A stretch of DNA of 39,810 nucleotides from a virus. Numbering within the stretch: the stretch's first letter is position 1; each line of letters begins with the position of its first letter. This document shows, piece by piece, positions 1,084-21,909 of this stretch. Both the position numbers and the translations under genes were made by a program. The DNA is taken from positions 1 through 39,810 of IMG/VR virus record IMGVR_UViG_3300009702_000471, one strand, 5' to 3'. The notes beneath the pieces are model-generated. The model did no database searches. It saw only the letters and a list, made by a program, of their open reading frames with translations, and had not been told where the DNA came from.

Positions 1084-1587
1084 ATGAGAATCACTCGCCG
1101 CCTTGAATTCGATGCTGGGCATAGAGTCCTCGGTCACGAGGGCAAGTGCAAGCATCTTCACGGACATCGCTACGTCGCTGAGATCTCCTGTTCAGCAAAA
1201 GAACTAGATCCATTGAGCCGAGTTATTGACTTTGGTGTCGTCAAAGAATTTGTTGGCCAATGGATTGAGGACAACTGGGACCATAACATTCTCCTCAATG
1301 CCCTCGATCCATTAGTAGACTTTCAATCTAATCATGCTGTCTGGCAAGGGAAGCTTCCCTTCATCCTCCCTCCTGGATTGAACCCTACGGCTGAAGTCAT
1401 GGCAAGAATCCTATTAGAGGAAGCAACAGCTCTCCTCAAAGGGCAGGGCATTATGGTGACTCATGTCCGCTTGTATGAGACTCCTAATTGTTGGGCTGAC
1501 TATTACTTTACTGATAGTTCCCAACTATCGCCAAACTATTATCTCGCTGACAAGGAGGACGATAGTGAACCTTCAACCGAAGAGTGA
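1084..1587 (+). CDS. queD: 6-carboxytetrahydropterin synthase QueD
   Basis: QueD converts dihydroneopterin triphosphate to 6-carboxy-5,6,7,8-tetrahydropterin, the second step from GTP to 7-deazaguanines. The 167-residue product shows the family pattern. Zinc-binding histidines are in FDAGH (residues 9-13) and HLHGH (24-28), the catalytic cysteine is C22, and WDHN (65-68), NPTAE (100-104) and ETPNC (132-136) follow. It is somewhat longer than the usual 120-150 residues because of an insert around 72-95 and an acidic tail. It opens a cluster with QueE, a QueC-like protein, FolE and DpdA. Here the pathway should serve DNA base modification rather than tRNA queuosine. Confidence 0.92.
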   Translation: MRITRRLEFDAGHRVLGHEGKCKHLHGHRYVAEISCSAKELDPLSRVIDFGVVKEFVGQWIEDNWDHNILLNALDPLVDFQSNHAVWQGKLPFILPPGLNPTAEVMARILLEEATALLKGQGIMVTHVRLYETPNCWADYYFTDSSQLSPNYYLADKEDDSEPSTEE

Positions 1588-2272
1588 ACCGGACAGAGAC
1601 GAAAGCAGAATCACTTACATCTCACACTGGGAAACAATCCAAGGAGAAGGGCCTTTTGCTGGAGAGCGAGCTGTTTTCATTCGGCTAGCAGGGTGTAACC
1701 TTCAATGTCCTTTCTGCGACACGGACTACACTTCCCTTCCTATTACGACCATCCCCTTCCAACTTGCCGAAGAAGTCCTTTCTGACTACCCCTCTCACAA
1801 GCTCATAGTAATTACAGGAGGGGAACCTTTCCGACAAGCTGGCCTAACGGAACTGATTAAAGCTCTGCTTGCAGGCTATCGCAATGTGCAGATCGAAACT
1901 AATGGAACTTGCTACATTCCTTCCTTTGCTTTTGCATCGTCAAATGTCACCATTGTCTGCAGCCCAAAGACTGCAAAGTTGCATCCAAGCGTAGAAAGGA
2001 TGATAAAACCTTTCTCTTTCCAGGTAGATCTCAAGTACATAGTAGCAGCAGATCAAATGAACGAGAGGGGATTGCCTTCTCATACTATGGGGCTTATGGG
2101 GAAGGTATGGTTGCCTCCTCTTCCTAATTCTGGTGTGAGAATTTACTTGCAGCCCCTAGATGAAGATGACCCTGTGAGAAACAGAAGGAACATGAAGGCA
2201 GCAGCAGAAGCCTGTATGAAACACGGCCACCGCTTGTCACTTCAGCTTCAAAAGATTGTAGGTTTGGACTGA
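1565..2272 (+). CDS. queE: 7-carboxy-7-deazaguanine synthase QueE (radical SAM)
   Basis: QueE makes 7-carboxy-7-deazaguanine (CDG) from the QueD product by radical SAM chemistry. The N-terminal region has the substrate-binding run WETIQGEG and then the cluster motif with C44, C48 and C51 (CX3CX2C), followed by ITGGEP near residue 83. I place the start at GTG 1565, six bases after the strong site AAGGAGG (1552-1558), giving 235 residues. Starts further upstream would add a non-homologous extension inside queD. The gene overlaps the end of queD by 23 bases, which suggests translational coupling. Motifs look intact, so CDG production is expected. Confidence 0.93.
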   Translation: MNLQPKSEPDRDESRITYISHWETIQGEGPFAGERAVFIRLAGCNLQCPFCDTDYTSLPITTIPFQLAEEVLSDYPSHKLIVITGGEPFRQAGLTELIKALLAGYRNVQIETNGTCYIPSFAFASSNVTIVCSPKTAKLHPSVERMIKPFSFQVDLKYIVAADQMNERGLPSHTMGLMGKVWLPPLPNSGVRIYLQPLDEDDPVRNRRNMKAAAEACMKHGHRLSLQLQKIVGLD

Positions 2273-2301
2273 GTGGGTTTCTAACGAAAAGGAGAGGAAA
2301 G

Positions 2302-2802
2302 ATGAGCGCTGTTGTACGGTTGCAAGCAGATATCACTTCAGTTGTAATGCTTGACTTTGTAATGAAGGAAGAACAGAAAGCAGAAGCGGTGTACTTCCTA
2401 TGCAACAAGAAGAAAGAGGAAAAGGAAGCAGAGAAAGTAAAAGCCTTGGCTGCTCATTACCAGATTCCTCTTCGCATCATAGATCTCTCTCCCTTCACTA
2501 ACCTAAGGAACAACAAAGAAGATCTCTTTGGGTTTATTTGTTGTTCCTTTCTGGCTGCTGGAATCTCGAAAAGAACTAAGATCTATCACAGGTTCCAGAG
2601 CATAGAGAGCATGCTGGCATTCAATGCTTCTATGCAATTTGCCTCGAAAGGAAAAGTATCCATCGCTGATCCTTTTCTTGGAAAAACAAAAGATGAAATC
2701 CTACAAAGAGGATTGCATATAAATGCTCCTCTACATTTAGTATCAACAAAGAAAAGCACCACCAGAAAAACCAAAGAAACGGGAAAAGGAAAGAAAAAGT
2801 AA
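2302..2802 (+). CDS. Degenerate QueC-like protein
   Basis: QueC normally turns CDG into preQ0 with ATP and ammonia. It needs an SGGxDS ATP-binding loop and a C-terminal four-cysteine zinc site. This 166-residue product resembles QueC along its length, with a QueC-like N-terminal strand and helix and SIADPFLGKTKDEIL near residues 120-134. The loop position instead reads QADITS (residues 8-13), losing both glycines and the aspartate. The protein ends in a lysine-rich tail just where the cysteine cluster should begin, so it is about 60 residues short. No missing part was found in other frames. It has a good ribosome site (AAGGAGAGG). A pseudo-enzyme, a partner for a host QueC, or a new activity are all possible. 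Confidence 0.7.
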   Translation: MSAVVRLQADITSVVMLDFVMKEEQKAEAVYFLCNKKKEEKEAEKVKALAAHYQIPLRIIDLSPFTNLRNNKEDLFGFICCSFLAAGISKRTKIYHRFQSIESMLAFNASMQFASKGKVSIADPFLGKTKDEILQRGLHINAPLHLVSTKKSTTRKTKETGKGKKK

Positions 2803-2815
2803 AGGAGCCTTTCAA

Positions 2816-3004
2816 ATGGGAATCGAATTCTATCCCGTAGCTATCGACGAAGTCATCCACACAACAGACTCGGCTGTGCTTGTAGACATAGATGGTGAGG
2901 AGATTTGGATTCCTAAGAGTGCCCTTGAACGTGATGTGATATGGAGTGACATGGAGATATATGTCGCCGAGTGGTTTCTCAATCGAAAAGGAATAGAATA
3001 CTAA
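2816..3004 (+). CDS. Small conserved-looking phage protein, function unknown
   Basis: The 62-residue product is acidic and has the run [15 protein letters not shown] in the middle and an amphipathic end, [14 protein letters not shown] recall similar tiny proteins beside replication genes of other phages, but no function is known to me. The start follows AAAGGAG by seven bases. Its stop overlaps the start of the next gene (TAATG), so it is translated with the phosphoribosyltransferase-FolE fusion and probably belongs to the same operon. Confidence 0.7.
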
Positions 3005-3945
3005 TGCCTCAACCAGTCAATCATGTCTCTTGGAAGCAATGTCATACAAGAGCAAAAGGCTTAGCACACATTATACATAACCTCATTTTATCTTCCTCTG
3101 ATCCTAGAAAGAGAATCCGATTATATGGAATTCCAAGAGGAGGAGATCATGCTGCCTCCTTAGTGATAGCAGAAGCCAATGATTTCCTCCTTCCTCTTGG
3201 ATACACCTTTGAACGAACAGACGACCCTACACAAGCTGATTTCTTCATTGACGACTTAGTTGATTCTGGAAAGACAAAGGAGTGGTATGAAGCTCAATAT
3301 AAAAAACCCTTCCTCACTCTGTTCAACAAACAAACAGAAACCATGCTTACTGATAAGTGGATTGTATTCCCTTGGGAAATGCACCAAGAGAAACAAGGCC
3401 CTGAGGAAAACATAGTAAGGCTGTTACAATTCATCGGAGAAGATCCTAAGCGGGAAGGGTTGAAAGACACTCCGAAAAGAGTAATCAAATCCTATGCTGA
3501 ACTCTTTGCTGGATACAAATTGACTCCAGCTGAAGTGATGAAAACCTTCAAGCACTCAACTTGTAATGAGATGGTAGTGGTAAAGAACATTGAATTCTTT
3601 TCCACTTGTGAGCATCACATGCTCCCCTTCTTTGGGAAAGCTCACATCGCCTACATTCCTAACGGGAAGGTCATAGGAGTGTCAAAGCTTGCTCGCATTC
3701 TTGATATCTATGCTCGTCGCCTTCAAATTCAAGAACGGTTGTGCGAACAGGTTACAGCAGCCTTAGACCAAAATCTTCAGCCAAAGGGTTCTGCTTGTAT
3801 CCTTGAGGCTTCTCATCTTTGTATGAGGTGCCGAGGAGTTAGCAAACAGAACTCAGTTATGGTCACATCTAGTCTCACCGGAGTCTTCTTAGAAGCTCAC
3901 ACTCAAAGTCGGACAGAGCTTCTTCAATTTGTAAATAACAGGTAA
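3004..3945 (+). CDS. folE: Phosphoribosyltransferase-GTP cyclohydrolase I fusion
   Basis: The 313-residue protein has two parts. Residues 1 to about 120 look like a type I phosphoribosyltransferase: [10 protein letters not shown] at 41-50 and the PRPP loop [10 protein letters not shown] at 82-91. Residues 132-313 are GTP cyclohydrolase I, with the zinc ligands in CEHH (202-205) and CMRCRGV (273-279). FolE opens GTP to dihydroneopterin triphosphate, the first step of 7-deazaguanine synthesis, and so supplies QueD. The start is ATG 3004, sharing a base with the previous stop. What the phosphoribosyltransferase part does is unknown; base or nucleotide salvage for the modification is a guess. Both halves look intact. 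Confidence 0.88.
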
Positions 3946-3950
3946 GTGCC

Positions 3951-4880
3951 ATGAAGAAAAAGGAAAGAAAACTAACAAAGAAACTTGCCAAGCACATGGG
4001 AGTAATCTCACCAAAGAAAGCTGCTATCACTTCCTTGTTCTTAGACTCTGGTGCAGTGTCCTTGCTTCACAGGGACATGAAAAACCAAGGAAAAGAATTC
4101 TTTGACTCTGAGGCCTTCTGGTCCTATGTTGATGCTTATGCTTCTTTTCTCAAACGGCATAAGAAGGAGATAGCCCATTATGCTAATGTGGACATCATAA
4201 GAGAACCTGAGCAAAGCTGGAAGGTGCAGCAATACTTGGAGAACAAGTATAAACTAGAGCCTGTTCCGGTTGTCCACAAAGGACCAGATGCTGAGAAGTG
4301 GCTAAGAAGGTACATAGAATTAGGGTACGATCTCATTGGGCTTGGAGGGATGGCTGCTAAGTTTGGAACATCTGCTTCTGGTTCTCGGGACTGGTTAGAT
4401 CGAATGTTCTCCATTGTCTGTGATACTAAAGACAAATACCCAAGAGTAAGAATTCATGGGTTTAGTGTCACAACAGTTTCCTCTATGATTCGCTGGCCTT
4501 GGTGGTCTGTGGACTCCACGAGCTGGAAGAAAATGGCTGCCTTCGGTCAAATTTGGTTGCCTAGAAAACTCAATGGAAAGTTTGAGTTCATAAAGAAAAA
4601 AGCATCCCCTGTGTTCTGCACAAGAGAAGCAAGCGTCCTTCCTCAGCATAAGAGGAAACATCTTTTGTCTTTGTCTTCTCTCAAGAAGAGTCTCTTGTTT
4701 GAATGGTTAGAGGAAGTCCAAGTTCCATTAGGAGGAAAGCATGAATTAGGTATTATCAACTCATACAAAGCAAGACAAACGGTTAATGTCCGATACTACA
4801 TGAAGGTAGTAGAAAACTTACCTGACTGGCCTTGGCCATTTCAGCTTCAACAGCAAAACGAAGGATTTAGTTATGAGTAA
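3951..4880 (+). CDS. dpdA: DpdA-like 7-deazaguanine DNA transglycosylase
   Basis: DpdA is the TGT-like enzyme that swaps guanine in DNA for a 7-deazaguanine. The 309-residue product shows LDSGA (31-35), YANVDII (77-83), PVPVVHKG (104-111), GLGG (130-133), HGF (169-171) and WSVDST (185-190), where D188 fits the catalytic nucleophile position of the TGT family. With FolE, QueD and QueE nearby, this makes a phage DNA modification pathway that should protect the genome from restriction. No QueF or amidotransferase was seen in the window, so reduction to preQ1 is not supported. Which base is inserted depends on the status of QueC. Confidence 0.85.
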   Translation: MKKKERKLTKKLAKHMGVISPKKAAITSLFLDSGAVSLLHRDMKNQGKEFFDSEAFWSYVDAYASFLKRHKKEIAHYANVDIIREPEQSWKVQQYLENKYKLEPVPVVHKGPDAEKWLRRYIELGYDLIGLGGMAAKFGTSASGSRDWLDRMFSIVCDTKDKYPRVRIHGFSVTTVSSMIRWPWWSVDSTSWKKMAAFGQIWLPRKLNGKFEFIKKKASPVFCTREASVLPQHKRKHLLSLSSLKKSLLFEWLEEVQVPLGGKHELGIINSYKARQTVNVRYYMKVVENLPDWPWPFQLQQQNEGFSYE

Positions 4881-5061
4881 AATGAAGCTTTTCTTTTCGG
4901 GAATTGAATCCGATCCTGACTTCAATCCTCCTTCTGTCTTTGGAGCTTGTGATGCTATGAGCTCCTTTTACTTCGCATCGAAAGGGAAGAAAGTCAACAA
5001 ACGGTTCAAACGAATACTAAAACAAGCCAAACGAGGAAGGAAGAGAAATGAAGCTAAATAG
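4873..5061 (+). CDS. Small basic protein, function unknown
   Basis: The 62-residue product starts with a hydrophobic strand (KLFFSGIES) and ends in a very basic tail of lysines and arginines. The start ATG overlaps the end of dpdA by eight bases and the end overlaps the clamp gene, so it sits inside a tightly packed operon. I do not recognise a family. The first 35 residues faintly recall the opening segment of longer TGT-like proteins, which the DpdA next door lacks, but this is too weak to name it. Confidence 0.55.
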   Translation: MSKMKLFFSGIESDPDFNPPSVFGACDAMSSFYFASKGKKVNKRFKRILKQAKRGRKRNEAK

Positions 5062-6058
5062 AGAGAAGGTGTTGAACGAATTGGAGGTAGTGCAATCTGG
5101 TTTATCGCAGAAAGAAATCCTTGAACAATCCTCATGCTTCATTCTCCGCAAAGGAAAAGTTCATACATTCAATGACGAGGTGAGTTGTGTTTATTCCTCT
5201 TGCTTAGCAAAGAGCGGAATAGAAGGAGCAGTTCCTTCAGTTCCTTTGCTGCAGTTATTGCAGCGAATGAAAGAAGAGGAAATCACAGTCGAACAAACTA
5301 AAAGCCAATTAGTCGTGAAAGGAAAGAACAAAAAGGCAGGCATTAAGTTCTACAAAGAAGTGATGCTTCCTATTGACATTATTCCTCCCACTAAACAATG
5401 GAGGCCAATAGGAAAAGGGTTCCAAGAAGGAGCATCCTTAGTAAGTGCCTGTACGAGCAAAGATGCCAGCAAGTTCGTTCTTACTTGTATTCACATCACT
5501 CCTACTTTCGTCGAAGCCTGCGATAGGCACCAAATAGCTCGATTTGAAACCAAGACAGGTTTCAAGGGTTCTGCCCTAATACGGAAAGAGTCTCTACTGA
5601 AGGTCCTTGAAATCGAACCTACCATGTATGGAGAGACAAAATCTTGGGTCTGGTTTCGTAACTCGTCAGGAGTGATGATAGCCGTCCGAATTTCTAAAGA
5701 CGATTATCCTGACTTGAATGAAATCCTCAGCACAAGAGGACAGCCTTCTGTCCTTCCTAAAGGATTAGGAGAATCCATTGAGAAAGCAGAAGTCTTCTCT
5801 GTTGATAATGCCAGTAACAATTCCATAAAGATCCATCTCAAGAAGAACACAATCCTTCTAAGAGGAGAAGGAGAGTTGGGCTGGTATGAAGAAAAGAAAA
5901 GAGCTAAGTATCAAGGCAAAGAGATTTCCTTTAGCATCAGTCCTCGTTTGCTGAAGGACATCATGTCCCAGCACAATGAGTGTGAGATCACACAAAATAT
6001 CCTTCGGATAGCAACAGGCAAGTATGTCTATGCAACCTCTTTAGGAGAAGCCCATTGA
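5048..6058 (+). CDS. DNA sliding clamp (beta-clamp-like)
   Basis: The 336-residue length and alternating beta-alpha pattern fit a DnaN-like processivity clamp. The central part VEACDRHQIARFE (about 164-176) matches the clamp signature where a beta strand ends in A.D.HR(L/I)A, and the C-terminus has the final-domain pattern ISFSISPRLLKDIM. Clamps are loaded on DNA by the clamp loader and hold the polymerase. The clamp loader gene (10266-11189) and the family A polymerase are close by, supporting the call. The start ATG follows GGAAGGAAGAG. Sequence similarity is only moderate by eye. Confidence 0.65.
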   Translation: MKLNREKVLNELEVVQSGLSQKEILEQSSCFILRKGKVHTFNDEVSCVYSSCLAKSGIEGAVPSVPLLQLLQRMKEEEITVEQTKSQLVVKGKNKKAGIKFYKEVMLPIDIIPPTKQWRPIGKGFQEGASLVSACTSKDASKFVLTCIHITPTFVEACDRHQIARFETKTGFKGSALIRKESLLKVLEIEPTMYGETKSWVWFRNSSGVMIAVRISKDDYPDLNEILSTRGQPSVLPKGLGESIEKAEVFSVDNASNNSIKIHLKKNTILLRGEGELGWYEEKKRAKYQGKEISFSISPRLLKDIMSQHNECEITQNILRIATGKYVYATSLGEAH

Positions 6059-19161: not shown

Positions 19162-19232
19162 CCCTCCGAGAAACAAGTCGTGGGAGACCAGACACAACTT
19201 GTTGAGGAGTTCTCGGAGGGCCTATTTCTTTT
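19162..19232. terminator. Bidirectional terminator between convergent blocks
   Basis: A perfect 11-bp outer stem (19162-19172 with 19210-19220, CCCTCCGAGAA and its complement) contains an inner 6-bp stem (ACAAGT with ACTTGT). Downstream on the + strand is CCTATTTCTTTT; on the - strand the stem is followed by GGTCTTTGCTT. It lies exactly in the 70-base gap between the convergent genes ending at 19151 and 19222. Confidence 0.85.
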
Positions 19233-19863
19233 GTTGAAGCAGACTCATCCTTTCCATCCAATCTTGGCTAATATCATCTGCTAAACAAATGTGACTTCCT
19301 GTCTGCAATGGAACGTCTGTCGGCAATTTTAAAAACTGCAGAATATCCTTCACAACTCGCTCAGCATTGTCCACAAGGTCCTCATACCAAACTTGAATAA
19401 ATGGCACTTCGTGGCCATGAAGCCAACGGCCAAGTTGCTGATCTTGTGTTTCCAAATCCCAATAGTGAGCCATAATTCGCTCAGCATCAAAATGGACGGT
19501 TCGGTGTGATTGAGGAATCTCTTGGCCCCTACGATGGCTCCAACAATCAGACTCTCTTGCTCTATACATGCTAACGGCTTGAGCCATACGGTCCTTACGC
19601 CGCATCCATACTATATGACAAGCGATCCGATCAGCCGAGGTAAGAATCTTCCAAATTTGAGTGAGTTCCCCATAGACCAATTTTGTACCGAATGGATAGG
19701 CTTCGTCAAATTTAGACCACTCACGTTTCAAGTTCTCCCCACTGAAACGATACCAAAGATGTTCTCGTGGGCTTCCAGCAACTCCAGTTGAAGTTAGCAT
19801 ATCACATAGCCAACTTGATCCTGTTCTAGCTGTAACAGCTATCATATAAAAGTTACGAGGCAT
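19222..19863 (-). CDS. Stf0-like sulfotransferase
   Basis: The 213-residue product resembles PAPS-dependent sulfotransferases of the Stf0 type. ARTGSSWLCDML near the start fits the 5'-phosphosulfate loop, and WMRRKDRMAQAVSMYRA fits the 3'-phosphate site. GSPREHLWY and VWYEDLV also match. Such enzymes move sulfate to sugars or other small molecules. The start is ATG 19863 (GTG 19875 possible), overlapping the glycosyltransferase end. Next to that gene it suggests a sulfated sugar, perhaps on the virion or the host surface. It is the last gene of the late block. Confidence 0.8.
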   Translation of the reverse strand: MPRNFYMIAVTARTGSSWLCDMLTSTGVAGSPREHLWYRFSGENLKREWSKFDEAYPFGTKLVYGELTQIWKILTSADRIACHIVWMRRKDRMAQAVSMYRARESDCWSHRRGQEIPQSHRTVHFDAERIMAHYWDLETQDQQLGRWLHGHEVPFIQVWYEDLVDNAERVVKDILQFLKLPTDVPLQTGSHICLADDISQDWMERMSLLQQKK

Positions 19864-21211
19864 TGATCTTCTCACGGTAAACGGAGGACAAATAGCGGTC
19901 CCAGTGGCGAATCATAACATCTGATGTTCCATGCAATCTTGCCCAATACTTTGCCCTGCGTGTGATGTCGCTTTTGCGTCTTGCGAGGAGAATTCCTAAT
20001 GCTACACTATCAGCAGAAGGATTGATGTCCAAAGGCACAACAACTTGTCCAACATCCCGTTCAATCTCTGGAATTGCTCCAACACGAGTCGAAACTACAG
20101 GTTTCCCAAGATACCATGCTTCGATTGTAGCTAGACAGCATCCTTCACTTTGCGATGTTGAGACAATAACATCAGCGGCAGTGAAGGCATTCCCAACATC
20201 CGATACTGCTGAGTGAATGATTGCACGGTCTCCTGCTGTTTTTTGAATCTTAGTTACAGCTTTCTCACGCCAACCACCATCTCCACAAAAGAAAGCTGTC
20301 CATTTGTCAGGCAACTTGCTAATAGCCTCAGCTAATACTTCGCAGTTTTTATCAGGAGAAAGACGGCCAATGTATGCTGCAATCTTTCCTTCAAGTGGAA
20401 GTCCAAATCGTTTGCGAGCTTCCTCCTTTGAACCATGAGCTAGACGGTTCTTATCTATTCCATTCAAAATGACGGACGTTCCAGGAGGACATAGTTCAGA
20501 GACCGCTTCTGAAACTGCAACATAGTGCGAGCAAATATGAGACTTGAAAGAATCACGGAGGGTCTGCTTTGTCCATTCGCAGCAACCGTGAGCCACACCG
20601 ATTGTAGGGTTGGCACTTGCAGATTGTGCAATTTCAACCATGCCTTGTAAAACACCAATTGCTGGTTGGCTTGTCGGTAATTTTATTTTTGAAGTACCTC
20701 CCCAACAAACCACTACATCTATGTCTGTTGTTGCTATGCGAAAAGCTTCTTCTTGTGTTGGATAAGACAAAATGTTTTTCTCATTTGTGTCCCAACTAAT
20801 CATAGGCGACAAAACTGCATTGGTGATGATCTCGGAACTTCCATTAGGAAATACAAGTATCTTCCAATTATGTTTTGATCCATTTGTCAAGACCCTGATC
20901 CATTCCTCGGCTCCACCTAATCCTAGACTACCAGTGAACATCAGGCAATTCAAAGGCCGATCATAGTCAATATCAACCGATGGTTTAGGAGGAACTGGTC
21001 TCTCTTCATTGGGCCAAAGATATTCAGGACATCTACCTATTTTATCGCGACCTACTATAGATACTATTTGATTTGAAAGTGTACACTTATTGAAAGTGCG
21101 ATGTTCACATTCTTGGCAAACCAGCATCCGCTCTTTAAACAAATCAGTTGCTGCATCTGTTGGACTGGATTGCTTGTATCTCTTGATTGCCTTTTTTGCA
21201 TTCCAAATCAT
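19853..21211 (-). CDS. GT4-type glycosyltransferase with N-terminal cysteine motif
   Basis: The 452-residue product has the GT-B fold pattern: GSLGLGGAEEW (donor-side glycine loop), VAVSEAV, ILNGID, YIGRLSPDKN and a C-terminal SEGCCLATIEAW that holds the EX7E-type pair. The first 75 residues carry a cysteine cluster (CQECEHRTFNKC ... CPEYLW) that may bind zinc. The start is ATG 21211, six bases after AGGAGG. It follows tail genes and overlaps the sulfotransferase, so both probably act on the same glycan. The sugar and acceptor are unknown. Confidence 0.85.
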   Translation of the reverse strand: MIWNAKKAIKRYKQSSPTDAATDLFKERMLVCQECEHRTFNKCTLSNQIVSIVGRDKIGRCPEYLWPNEERPVPPKPSVDIDYDRPLNCLMFTGSLGLGGAEEWIRVLTNGSKHNWKILVFPNGSSEIITNAVLSPMISWDTNEKNILSYPTQEEAFRIATTDIDVVVCWGGTSKIKLPTSQPAIGVLQGMVEIAQSASANPTIGVAHGCCEWTKQTLRDSFKSHICSHYVAVSEAVSELCPPGTSVILNGIDKNRLAHGSKEEARKRFGLPLEGKIAAYIGRLSPDKNCEVLAEAISKLPDKWTAFFCGDGGWREKAVTKIQKTAGDRAIIHSAVSDVGNAFTAADVIVSTSQSEGCCLATIEAWYLGKPVVSTRVGAIPEIERDVGQVVVPLDINPSADSVALGILLARRKSDITRRAKYWARLHGTSDVMIRHWDRYLSSVYREKINAS

Positions 21212-21222
21212 CTTATCCCTCC

Positions 21223-21909
21223 TCAAGGATAGTAAGGTTCAATCGTCAGTTTCTTAGTGTGGTCAACTTGCCAGTCACTCTCAGCGGTCTGGTCCGATGC
21301 TCCTGGGAATTCATTCTTTCCTAAACAGTGAAAGAATTCACCTGCTCCGTTTGGATTTTTTAGTAGCCAAAAGGTGCTAGTATCAAACTGCTTTACCGAC
21401 TCAAAATCAAAAGATCGTGGAACTGTGGACAAGCTCCACTTACTGTTAATTGTTCCTGCTCCGAAAATGTTTCCATAGGCTAATTCTATTCCTACAAAGC
21501 GAACATCTAAGATCAAATCGGAAATATCTACAAACCAAATCCAACTACAAGGATTGAAATTTCCAATTGAAGGGCCTGGTCCAAATCCTCCATCAAGAGC
21601 TACAGGGAAAGCAGGAAATGTTTGATTAAAAAATTCACGAGTAAGTATATGCTCTCCGTTCATCCTCTTAGCGGCTTTTGCTGAATTCCCCGGACTGGCA
21701 TCTATTGATGCAAGTCTAGTGAAAAACGTATCAGGAGGAACAGTCAATTTCCAGTGGGATGGAACACACTTACAGTTTCCACACACTCCTTGCAATCCTT
21801 GTATAGCAACATCCTCTCCTCCAAAAGGCTTTGTCTCGCCAAACTTAATTTCTTTTCTTGTTGCAGGATTGCAGCAAGGTTCAGGAGGGTTGAAATGCCA
21901 GATACCCAT
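21223..21909 (-). CDS. Probable tail or baseplate protein, function unknown
   Basis: The 228-residue product has a cysteine-rich N-terminal part (PEPCCNP, then CGNCKCVPSHWKL) and a long aromatic, beta-like remainder. I do not recognise the family by name; similar cysteine-start proteins occur near tail genes of planctomycete-like phages in my memory. The start ATG follows a GAAGGGA site. Position between the FTL-domain protein and the glycosyltransferase suggests a virion component. Confidence 0.55.
   Translation of the reverse strand: MGIWHFNPPEPCCNPATRKEIKFGETKPFGGEDVAIQGLQGVCGNCKCVPSHWKLTVPPDTFFTRLASIDASPGNSAKAAKRMNGEHILTREFFNQTFPAFPVALDGGFGPGPSIGNFNPCSWIWFVDISDLILDVRFVGIELAYGNIFGAGTINSKWSLSTVPRSFDFESVKQFDTSTFWLLKNPNGAGEFFHCLGKNEFPGASDQTAESDWQVDHTKKLTIEPYYP

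What the first reader, a model, noticed from the sequence alone, without database searches (positions are those of the whole stretch)
2302..2802. QueC homologue without ATP loop or zinc cysteines inside a deazaguanine DNA modification cluster
FolE, QueD, QueE and DpdA look intact, but the QueC-like protein has QADITS instead of SGGxDS and ends before the cysteine cluster. Three outcomes are possible: the phage relies on host QueC for preQ0; the DNA carries CDG or another base instead of preQ0; or the degenerate protein has a new role such as channelling the base to DpdA. The frame is open and has a good ribosome site, so it is not simply dead.
Basis: partly seen in the sequence, partly recalled or inferred. 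Interest (0 to 1): 0.72.

Follow-up and report, generated by a model that had tools for sequence, protein, structure and literature searches.

The report
Dead QueC relative in phage DNA-modification cluster
An uncultured phage that carries genes for an unusual DNA base makes a cut-down copy of the enzyme QueC in which every known catalytic site is gone but the fold and reading frame are kept, so the protein cannot do QueC chemistry yet does not look like a dead gene.

Summary
ORF 2302-2802 is a real QueC relative (Pfam QueC 5e-7, 29.8 bits, above its cut-off). It lost SGGxDS, the Tyr and His of YxQxHxxE, VPxRN, YPDC and the zinc cysteines. It keeps 4 of 19 conserved QueC columns, while the same contig keeps 10/10 (QueD), 22/23 (QueE), 37/37 (FolE) and 17/17 (DpdA). 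Among QueC hits in 240 related viral loci it is the only one with no trace of the ATP loop. Relatives carry an intact QueC in the same gene order, so the change happened in place.

It is not a neutral relic. The frame, codon bias, ribosome site and hydrophobic core are kept. Simulated neutral decay never left an open frame at this divergence.

Phage-encoded chemistry therefore stops at CDG. Across relatives the QueC slot is swapped: QueC, or a QueD-like paralogue, almost never both. The window has neither. Its DpdA also has rare residues (V36, S172) at two positions that best separate DpdAs of QueC clusters from those of paralogue clusters.

Best reading: a QueC-derived pseudoenzyme beside a DpdA that inserts CDG or a CDG-derived base. 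Host-made preQ0 is the main rival. The base and any partner are untested; the contig is incomplete.

The parts
1084..1587 (+). QueD (6-carboxytetrahydropterin synthase), intact
   Evidence: PF01242 1e-31; keeps 10/10 conserved columns
1565..2272 (+). QueE (CDG synthase, radical SAM), probable GTG start at 1565, intact
   Evidence: PHROG 2076 2e-44; CxxxCxxC present; keeps 22/23 conserved columns
2289..2294 (+). Ribosome-binding site AAGGAG, 7 nt before the ATG of the QueC-like gene
   Evidence: sequence
2302..2802 (+). QueC-derived protein without catalytic sites (166 aa)
2323..2340 (+). Codons of residues 8-13, QADITS, at the place of SGGxDS
   Evidence: alignment
2587..2598 (+). Codons of residues 96-99, HRFQ, at the place of YPDC
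   Evidence: profile alignment
2749..2799 (+). Lys/Thr-rich tail replacing the zinc Cys region
   Evidence: profile alignment; low model confidence at residues 152-161
2816..3004 (+). 62-aa phage protein between the QueC-like gene and folE, function unknown
   Evidence: PHROG 8389 1e-5
3004..3945 (+). FolE with an N-terminal phosphoribosyltransferase-like region, intact
   Evidence: PF01227 1e-69 at residues 134-309; weak PRTase match at 80-128; 37/37 conserved columns
3951..4880 (+). DpdA (DNA base exchange enzyme), intact but with rare V36 and S172
   Evidence: PHROG 887 4e-34; 17/17 conserved columns; V36 and S172

Best explanation
The gene descends in place from a working phage QueC. It lost its ATP loop, substrate motifs and zinc site, but is still made as a folded protein with a non-catalytic job (a pseudoenzyme). 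FolE, QueD and QueE still make CDG (7-carboxy-7-deazaguanine), and phage-encoded chemistry ends there. DpdA, changed at two positions that track cluster type in its relatives, then most likely puts CDG or a CDG-derived base into phage DNA instead of preQ0. The protein probably acts as a scaffold or regulator of QueE or DpdA. Shown here: loss of all known QueC catalytic motifs, descent in place, and an open, coding-like, fold-compatible frame. Inferred: that the protein is made and useful, the identity of the base, and the partner.
For: Loss is specific to this gene: 4/19 conserved columns kept against 10/10, 22/23, 37/37 and 17/17 in the neighbours. Intact QueC sits in the same order queD-queE-queC-folE-dpdA in L164, L172/L198, L115, L002 and L040. 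Selection: 30 of 36 aligned core columns stay hydrophobic against 14.7 expected, 0 of 20,000 random draws as high; codon score 0.219 in frame, negative in the other frames, as in neighbouring genes; neutral decay of four intact genes to 27% identity left 0 of 1,600 frames open, and to 50% at most 0.75%. AlphaFold2 with 39 relatives gives the Rossmann-like core at mean pLDDT 84; nearest solved folds are Cap9 (TM 0.73) and B. subtilis QueC (TM 0.71). DpdA position 36 is F/Y in 105 of 106 non-redundant DpdAs of QueC clusters and V only in the window; position 172 is G/A in 157 of 159 rows and S in the window and one other. Essential residues Y35, R99 and Y131 of E. coli QueC: PMC13329287.
Against: No close relative of the protein was found in viral, phage or genome collections, so selection cannot be measured by dN/dS. 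The structural model used an alignment of intact QueCs, which favours their fold; without an alignment the model is poor (pLDDT 44). The DpdA link rests on few independent events (6 pairs on supported branches; direction consistent, not significant), and intact-QueC L167 carries a DpdA with the paralogue-cluster residues (H, A). The base in the DNA is unknown. The old CDG-contact residues are gone, so a role that still binds CDG is doubtful.
Confidence: 0.48

Rival explanations
1. The phage uses host QueC: phage FolE, QueD and QueE raise the CDG pool, host QueC turns it into preQ0, and DpdA inserts preQ0. The phage QueC became redundant and its remains drift or serve a minor role.
For: Many phage hosts encode the whole Q pathway, and host precursors are thought to feed phage DpdA; E. 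coli expressing only 9g DpdA had preQ0 in plasmid DNA (PMC6884629).
Against: DpdA lacks the F/Y36 found in 105 of 106 DpdAs of QueC clusters. A redundant gene would not keep frame, codon bias and core.
Confidence: 0.27
2. A pseudogene late in decay that by luck kept an open frame; it does nothing.
For: Conserved QueC columns mostly lost; Lys-rich low-complexity tail; no close relative to prove conservation.
Against: Neutral simulations leave 0 of 1,600 frames open at 27% identity and at most 0.75% at 50%; core hydrophobicity and in-frame codon bias kept.
Confidence: 0.1
3. A working tailoring enzyme (second QueC or the QueD-like paralogue) lies in the missing part of the genome and this copy is a spare.
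For: The contig lacks recognisable terminase and portal genes, so it is incomplete; L221 carries two QueC-like genes.
Against: In 193 of 194 loci with a tailoring gene and at least three core genes, that gene does not lie more than 1,083 bp upstream of the cluster; downstream the window holds 35 kb without one (for the paralogue; ORFs for others).
Confidence: 0.1
4. The protein is a decoy or inhibitor aimed at host QueC-fold defence proteins (Cap9 of type IV CBASS, QatC of Qat).
For: Best fold match is Cap9 in complex with its partner; both defences use QueC-fold enzymes (PMC13329287).
Against: B. subtilis QueC matches almost as well (TM 0.71), and the profile match is to the general PADLOC QueC model, with no QatC match; position inside the deazaguanine cluster points to a local role.
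Confidence: 0.05

Closest known systems
Canonical QueC (PF06508 cluster 1; 7-cyano-7-deazaguanine synthase)
   Same: Homology, place in the queD-queE-queC-folE-dpdA order, core fold
   Different: No ATP loop, no YxQxH, VPxRN or YPDC, no zinc site, 166 aa instead of about 222-230
Cap9 (type IV CBASS) and QatC (Qat)
   Same: QueC fold reused for another task; Cap9 is the top fold match
   Different: Both keep SGGxDS and a zinc motif (PMC13329287); the window protein keeps neither and is not in a defence operon
Phage clusters with FolE, QueD, QueE, DpdA and no QueC, such as Mycobacterium phage Bipper
   Same: CDG core and DpdA without a working QueC; proposed to carry the QueC substrate CDG (PMC6884629)
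   Different: Bipper has no QueC-like gene in its cluster; its DpdA has H at the position of V36 and G at that of S172
Phage clusters with a QueD-like paralogue (PHROG 17812) instead of QueC, such as Cellulophaga phage phiST
   Same: FolE, QueD, QueE and usually DpdA, no QueC
   Different: The window lacks the paralogue. From memory, unverified: Cui et al. 2023 (NAR) named a CDG decarboxylase DpdL, and this paralogue may be it

Membership tests
QueC (7-cyano-7-deazaguanine synthase) | Homology to PF06508 | tested here: met
   29.8 bits, cut-off 22
QueC (7-cyano-7-deazaguanine synthase) | NCBIfam QueC equivalog score | tested here: not met
   29.6 bits, cut-off 150.3; relative L040 scores 191
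QueC (7-cyano-7-deazaguanine synthase) | SGGxDS ATP loop | tested here: not met
   QADITS
QueC (7-cyano-7-deazaguanine synthase) | YxQxHxxE, VPxRN and YPDC motifs (Y35, R99, Y131 essential in E. coli, PMC13329287) | tested here: not met
   C34/K38 with E42 kept; VPxRN loop deleted with RN as KE; HRFQ
QueC (7-cyano-7-deazaguanine synthase) | C(x)8CxxCxxC zinc site | tested here: not met
   K150, T160, then the chain ends
QueC (7-cyano-7-deazaguanine synthase) | Makes preQ0 from CDG | not testable with these tools
   needs complementation or an enzyme assay
Phage 7-deazaguanine DNA modification cluster | FolE, QueD, QueE and DpdA together | tested here: met
Phage 7-deazaguanine DNA modification cluster | 7-deazaguanine in virion DNA | not testable with these tools
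   uncultured virus, no DNA at hand
Cap9 / QatC defence proteins | SGGxDS plus a zinc motif, in a CBASS or Qat operon | tested here: not met
   motifs absent; no PADLOC match to QatC

The most novel reading that the evidence does not exclude
A QueC-fold pseudoenzyme that has traded catalysis for binding: it partners DpdA or QueE and helps direct CDG, or a base made from it, into phage DNA, together with a DpdA whose base specificity has shifted away from both preQ0 and the product of the QueD-like paralogue clusters.
Probability: 0.25. Interest if true: 0.72.

Novelty: new variant of a known kind. Interest (0 to 1): 0.5.

Why it matters
The QueC subfamilies for which the recent survey reports motifs keep an ATP loop (PMC13329287), so a folded QueC descendant with no catalytic site would be the first pseudoenzyme of this fold that I know of. 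It also makes a testable link between a lost tailoring enzyme and changed positions in DpdA, which could show how phages choose the modified base they insert.

Tried and rejected
Sequencing error or frameshift: rejected, because changes are spread over the whole gene and no other frame restores a motif. Regression of QueC identity on neighbour identity over all loci was too noisy to use; the conserved-column comparison replaced it. Searches for close relatives by the QueC-like, DpdA, clamp and polymerase proteins found none in IMG/VR, nor did the QueC-like protein in phages or genomes. The DpdA tree does not settle the base: the smallest well-supported set around the window mixes QueC and paralogue clusters. 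No solved DpdA structure was found by sequence (its MHC hits are chance), so the place of residues 36 and 172 in the pocket is inferred from their motifs only. Folding without an alignment was uninformative. One search was a query typed by mistake and means nothing. The paper on dDG, dCDG and DpdL (Cui et al. 2023) is not held.

Full report
What is there. The window is one virus record of IMG/VR, 39,810 bp, linear. Its first part carries, all on the + strand, a cold-shock-like gene (545-1069), queD (1084-1587), queE (probable GTG start 1565, to 2272), the QueC-like gene (2302-2802), a 62-aa gene (2816-3004), folE with an N-terminal phosphoribosyltransferase-like region (3004-3945), dpdA (3951-4880) and a sliding clamp (5048-6058). 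The contig is probably incomplete: the 5' end cuts a gene and no terminase or portal was recognised.

Is it QueC? By homology, yes: Pfam QueC 5e-7, PHROG QueC-like 2e-8, PADLOC QueC 5e-10. By the NCBIfam equivalog test, no: 29.6 bits against a cut-off of 150.3, where the intact relative L040 scores 191. The motifs that define working QueC, including residues shown to be essential in E. coli (PMC13329287), are gone: SGGxDS is QADITS, the Tyr and His of YxQxHxxE are C34 and K38, the stretch before VPxRN is deleted and RN reads KE, YPDC reads HRFQ, and the zinc cysteines are K150 and T160 followed by the end of the chain. The finding named only the first and the last of these.

Is the loss special to this gene? 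In alignments with 118-173 relatives per family, the window keeps 10/10 conserved QueD columns, 22/23 QueE, 37/37 FolE and 17/17 DpdA, but 4/19 QueC; the poorest other QueC keeps 12. Among all QueC hits in 240 loci fetched by FolE, QueE and DpdA, the six others without a textbook SGGxDS have close variants (TGGxDS or SSGxDS); only the window has no trace of the loop. L164, L172/L198, L115, L002 and L040 carry an intact QueC in the same gene order, so the window gene most likely changed in place.

Is it dead? Four results say no. The frame is open over 166 codons with a good ribosome site. Its codon score is 0.219 in frame and negative in the other two, like its neighbours. Of 36 aligned columns that are hydrophobic in intact QueCs, 30 stay hydrophobic against 14.7 expected, with 0 of 20,000 random draws as high. 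Neutral decay of four intact genes to 27% identity left none of 1,600 simulated frames open, and at 50% identity at most 0.75%, even without indels. AlphaFold2 with 39 relatives gives the core fold at mean pLDDT 84, with a disordered tail, and Foldseek returns Cap9 and B. subtilis QueC first (TM 0.73 and 0.71). That model leans on the relatives; without them it is poor (pLDDT 44). With no close relative, dN/dS could not be measured.

What base is made? FolE, QueD and QueE lead to CDG; QueC would be needed for preQ0 (pathway: PMC13329287). In related loci the step after CDG is swapped. Counting loci with DpdA, 132 have QueC only, 61 have only a QueD-like paralogue placed after folE, 1 has both (the QueC match there is weak, 22 bits), and 20 have neither. 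Loci were not dereplicated for this count, some are cut short, and the 132 include the window itself (as L001). The paralogue is PHROG 17812 and occurs in Cellulophaga phage phiST. The window has no paralogue. In L034-L037 a carbon-nitrogen hydrolase, and in L056 and L060 a methyltransferase, sits between queE and folE.

DpdA gives a hint. Of the conserved positions, 36 (LDSGA-x-S) and 172 (HGF-x) separate the two cluster types best: F/Y36 in 105 of 106 DpdAs of QueC clusters, H or P in 33 of 39 of paralogue clusters; G172 in 94 of 106 against A172 in 35 of 39. The window has V36, seen in no other of 159 rows, and S172, seen in one other. The trend never runs the other way on independent branches, but only 6 such pairs exist and it is not significant; L167, with QueC, has the paralogue-type residues. 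This was noticed after the fact and is a lead.

Verdict. The best-supported mechanism is a QueC-derived pseudoenzyme in a cluster whose own chemistry ends at CDG, with DpdA inserting CDG or a derivative; host-supplied preQ0 is the main rival. Mycobacterium phage Bipper is a precedent for a CDG core and DpdA without QueC in a host genus without the pathway (PMC6884629). The identity of the base and the job of the protein need experiments.

Noticed in passing
L003, L006, L023, L025, L055, L057, L058, L068, L069 and other loci: QueC and a QueD-like paralogue (PHROG 17812) are almost mutually exclusive in phage clusters with DpdA (132 vs 61, 1 both, 20 neither). The paralogue may be the DpdL of Cui et al. 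2023, which I could not check.
   Followed up: partly
L003:9027-10181, L023:8715-9953, L026, L057 and others: A group-1 glycosyltransferase lies between the QueD-like paralogue and DpdA in many of these clusters; the base may be glycosylated.
   Followed up: partly
L006:8111-9427, L025:8261-9400: An extra radical SAM protein, not QueE, lies between the QueD-like paralogue and DpdA.
   Followed up: no
L034-L037, about 6021-6956 in L034: A carbon-nitrogen hydrolase (nitrilase family) sits between queE and folE where QueC often lies; no QueC or QueD-like paralogue was found.
   Followed up: partly
L056:6133-6999, L060:6090-6950: A class I methyltransferase sits between queE and folE in clusters with neither QueC nor the QueD-like paralogue. 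L060's DpdA carries a long insertion that looks like an intein.
   Followed up: partly
DpdA residues 36 and 172 (window 4056-4058 and 4464-4466): These positions separate DpdAs of QueC clusters (F, G) from those of paralogue clusters (H/P, A); possible base-specificity markers.
   Followed up: partly
window 3004-3945: FolE carries an N-terminal phosphoribosyltransferase-like region; FolE searches found relatives that align over it.
   Followed up: no
window 19222-21226, - strand: A Stf0-like sulphotransferase overlaps a glycosyltransferase gene; an unusual pair for a phage.
   Followed up: no
L221:3497-4854: Two adjacent QueC-like genes with SSGLDS and TGGMDS loops.
   Followed up: no
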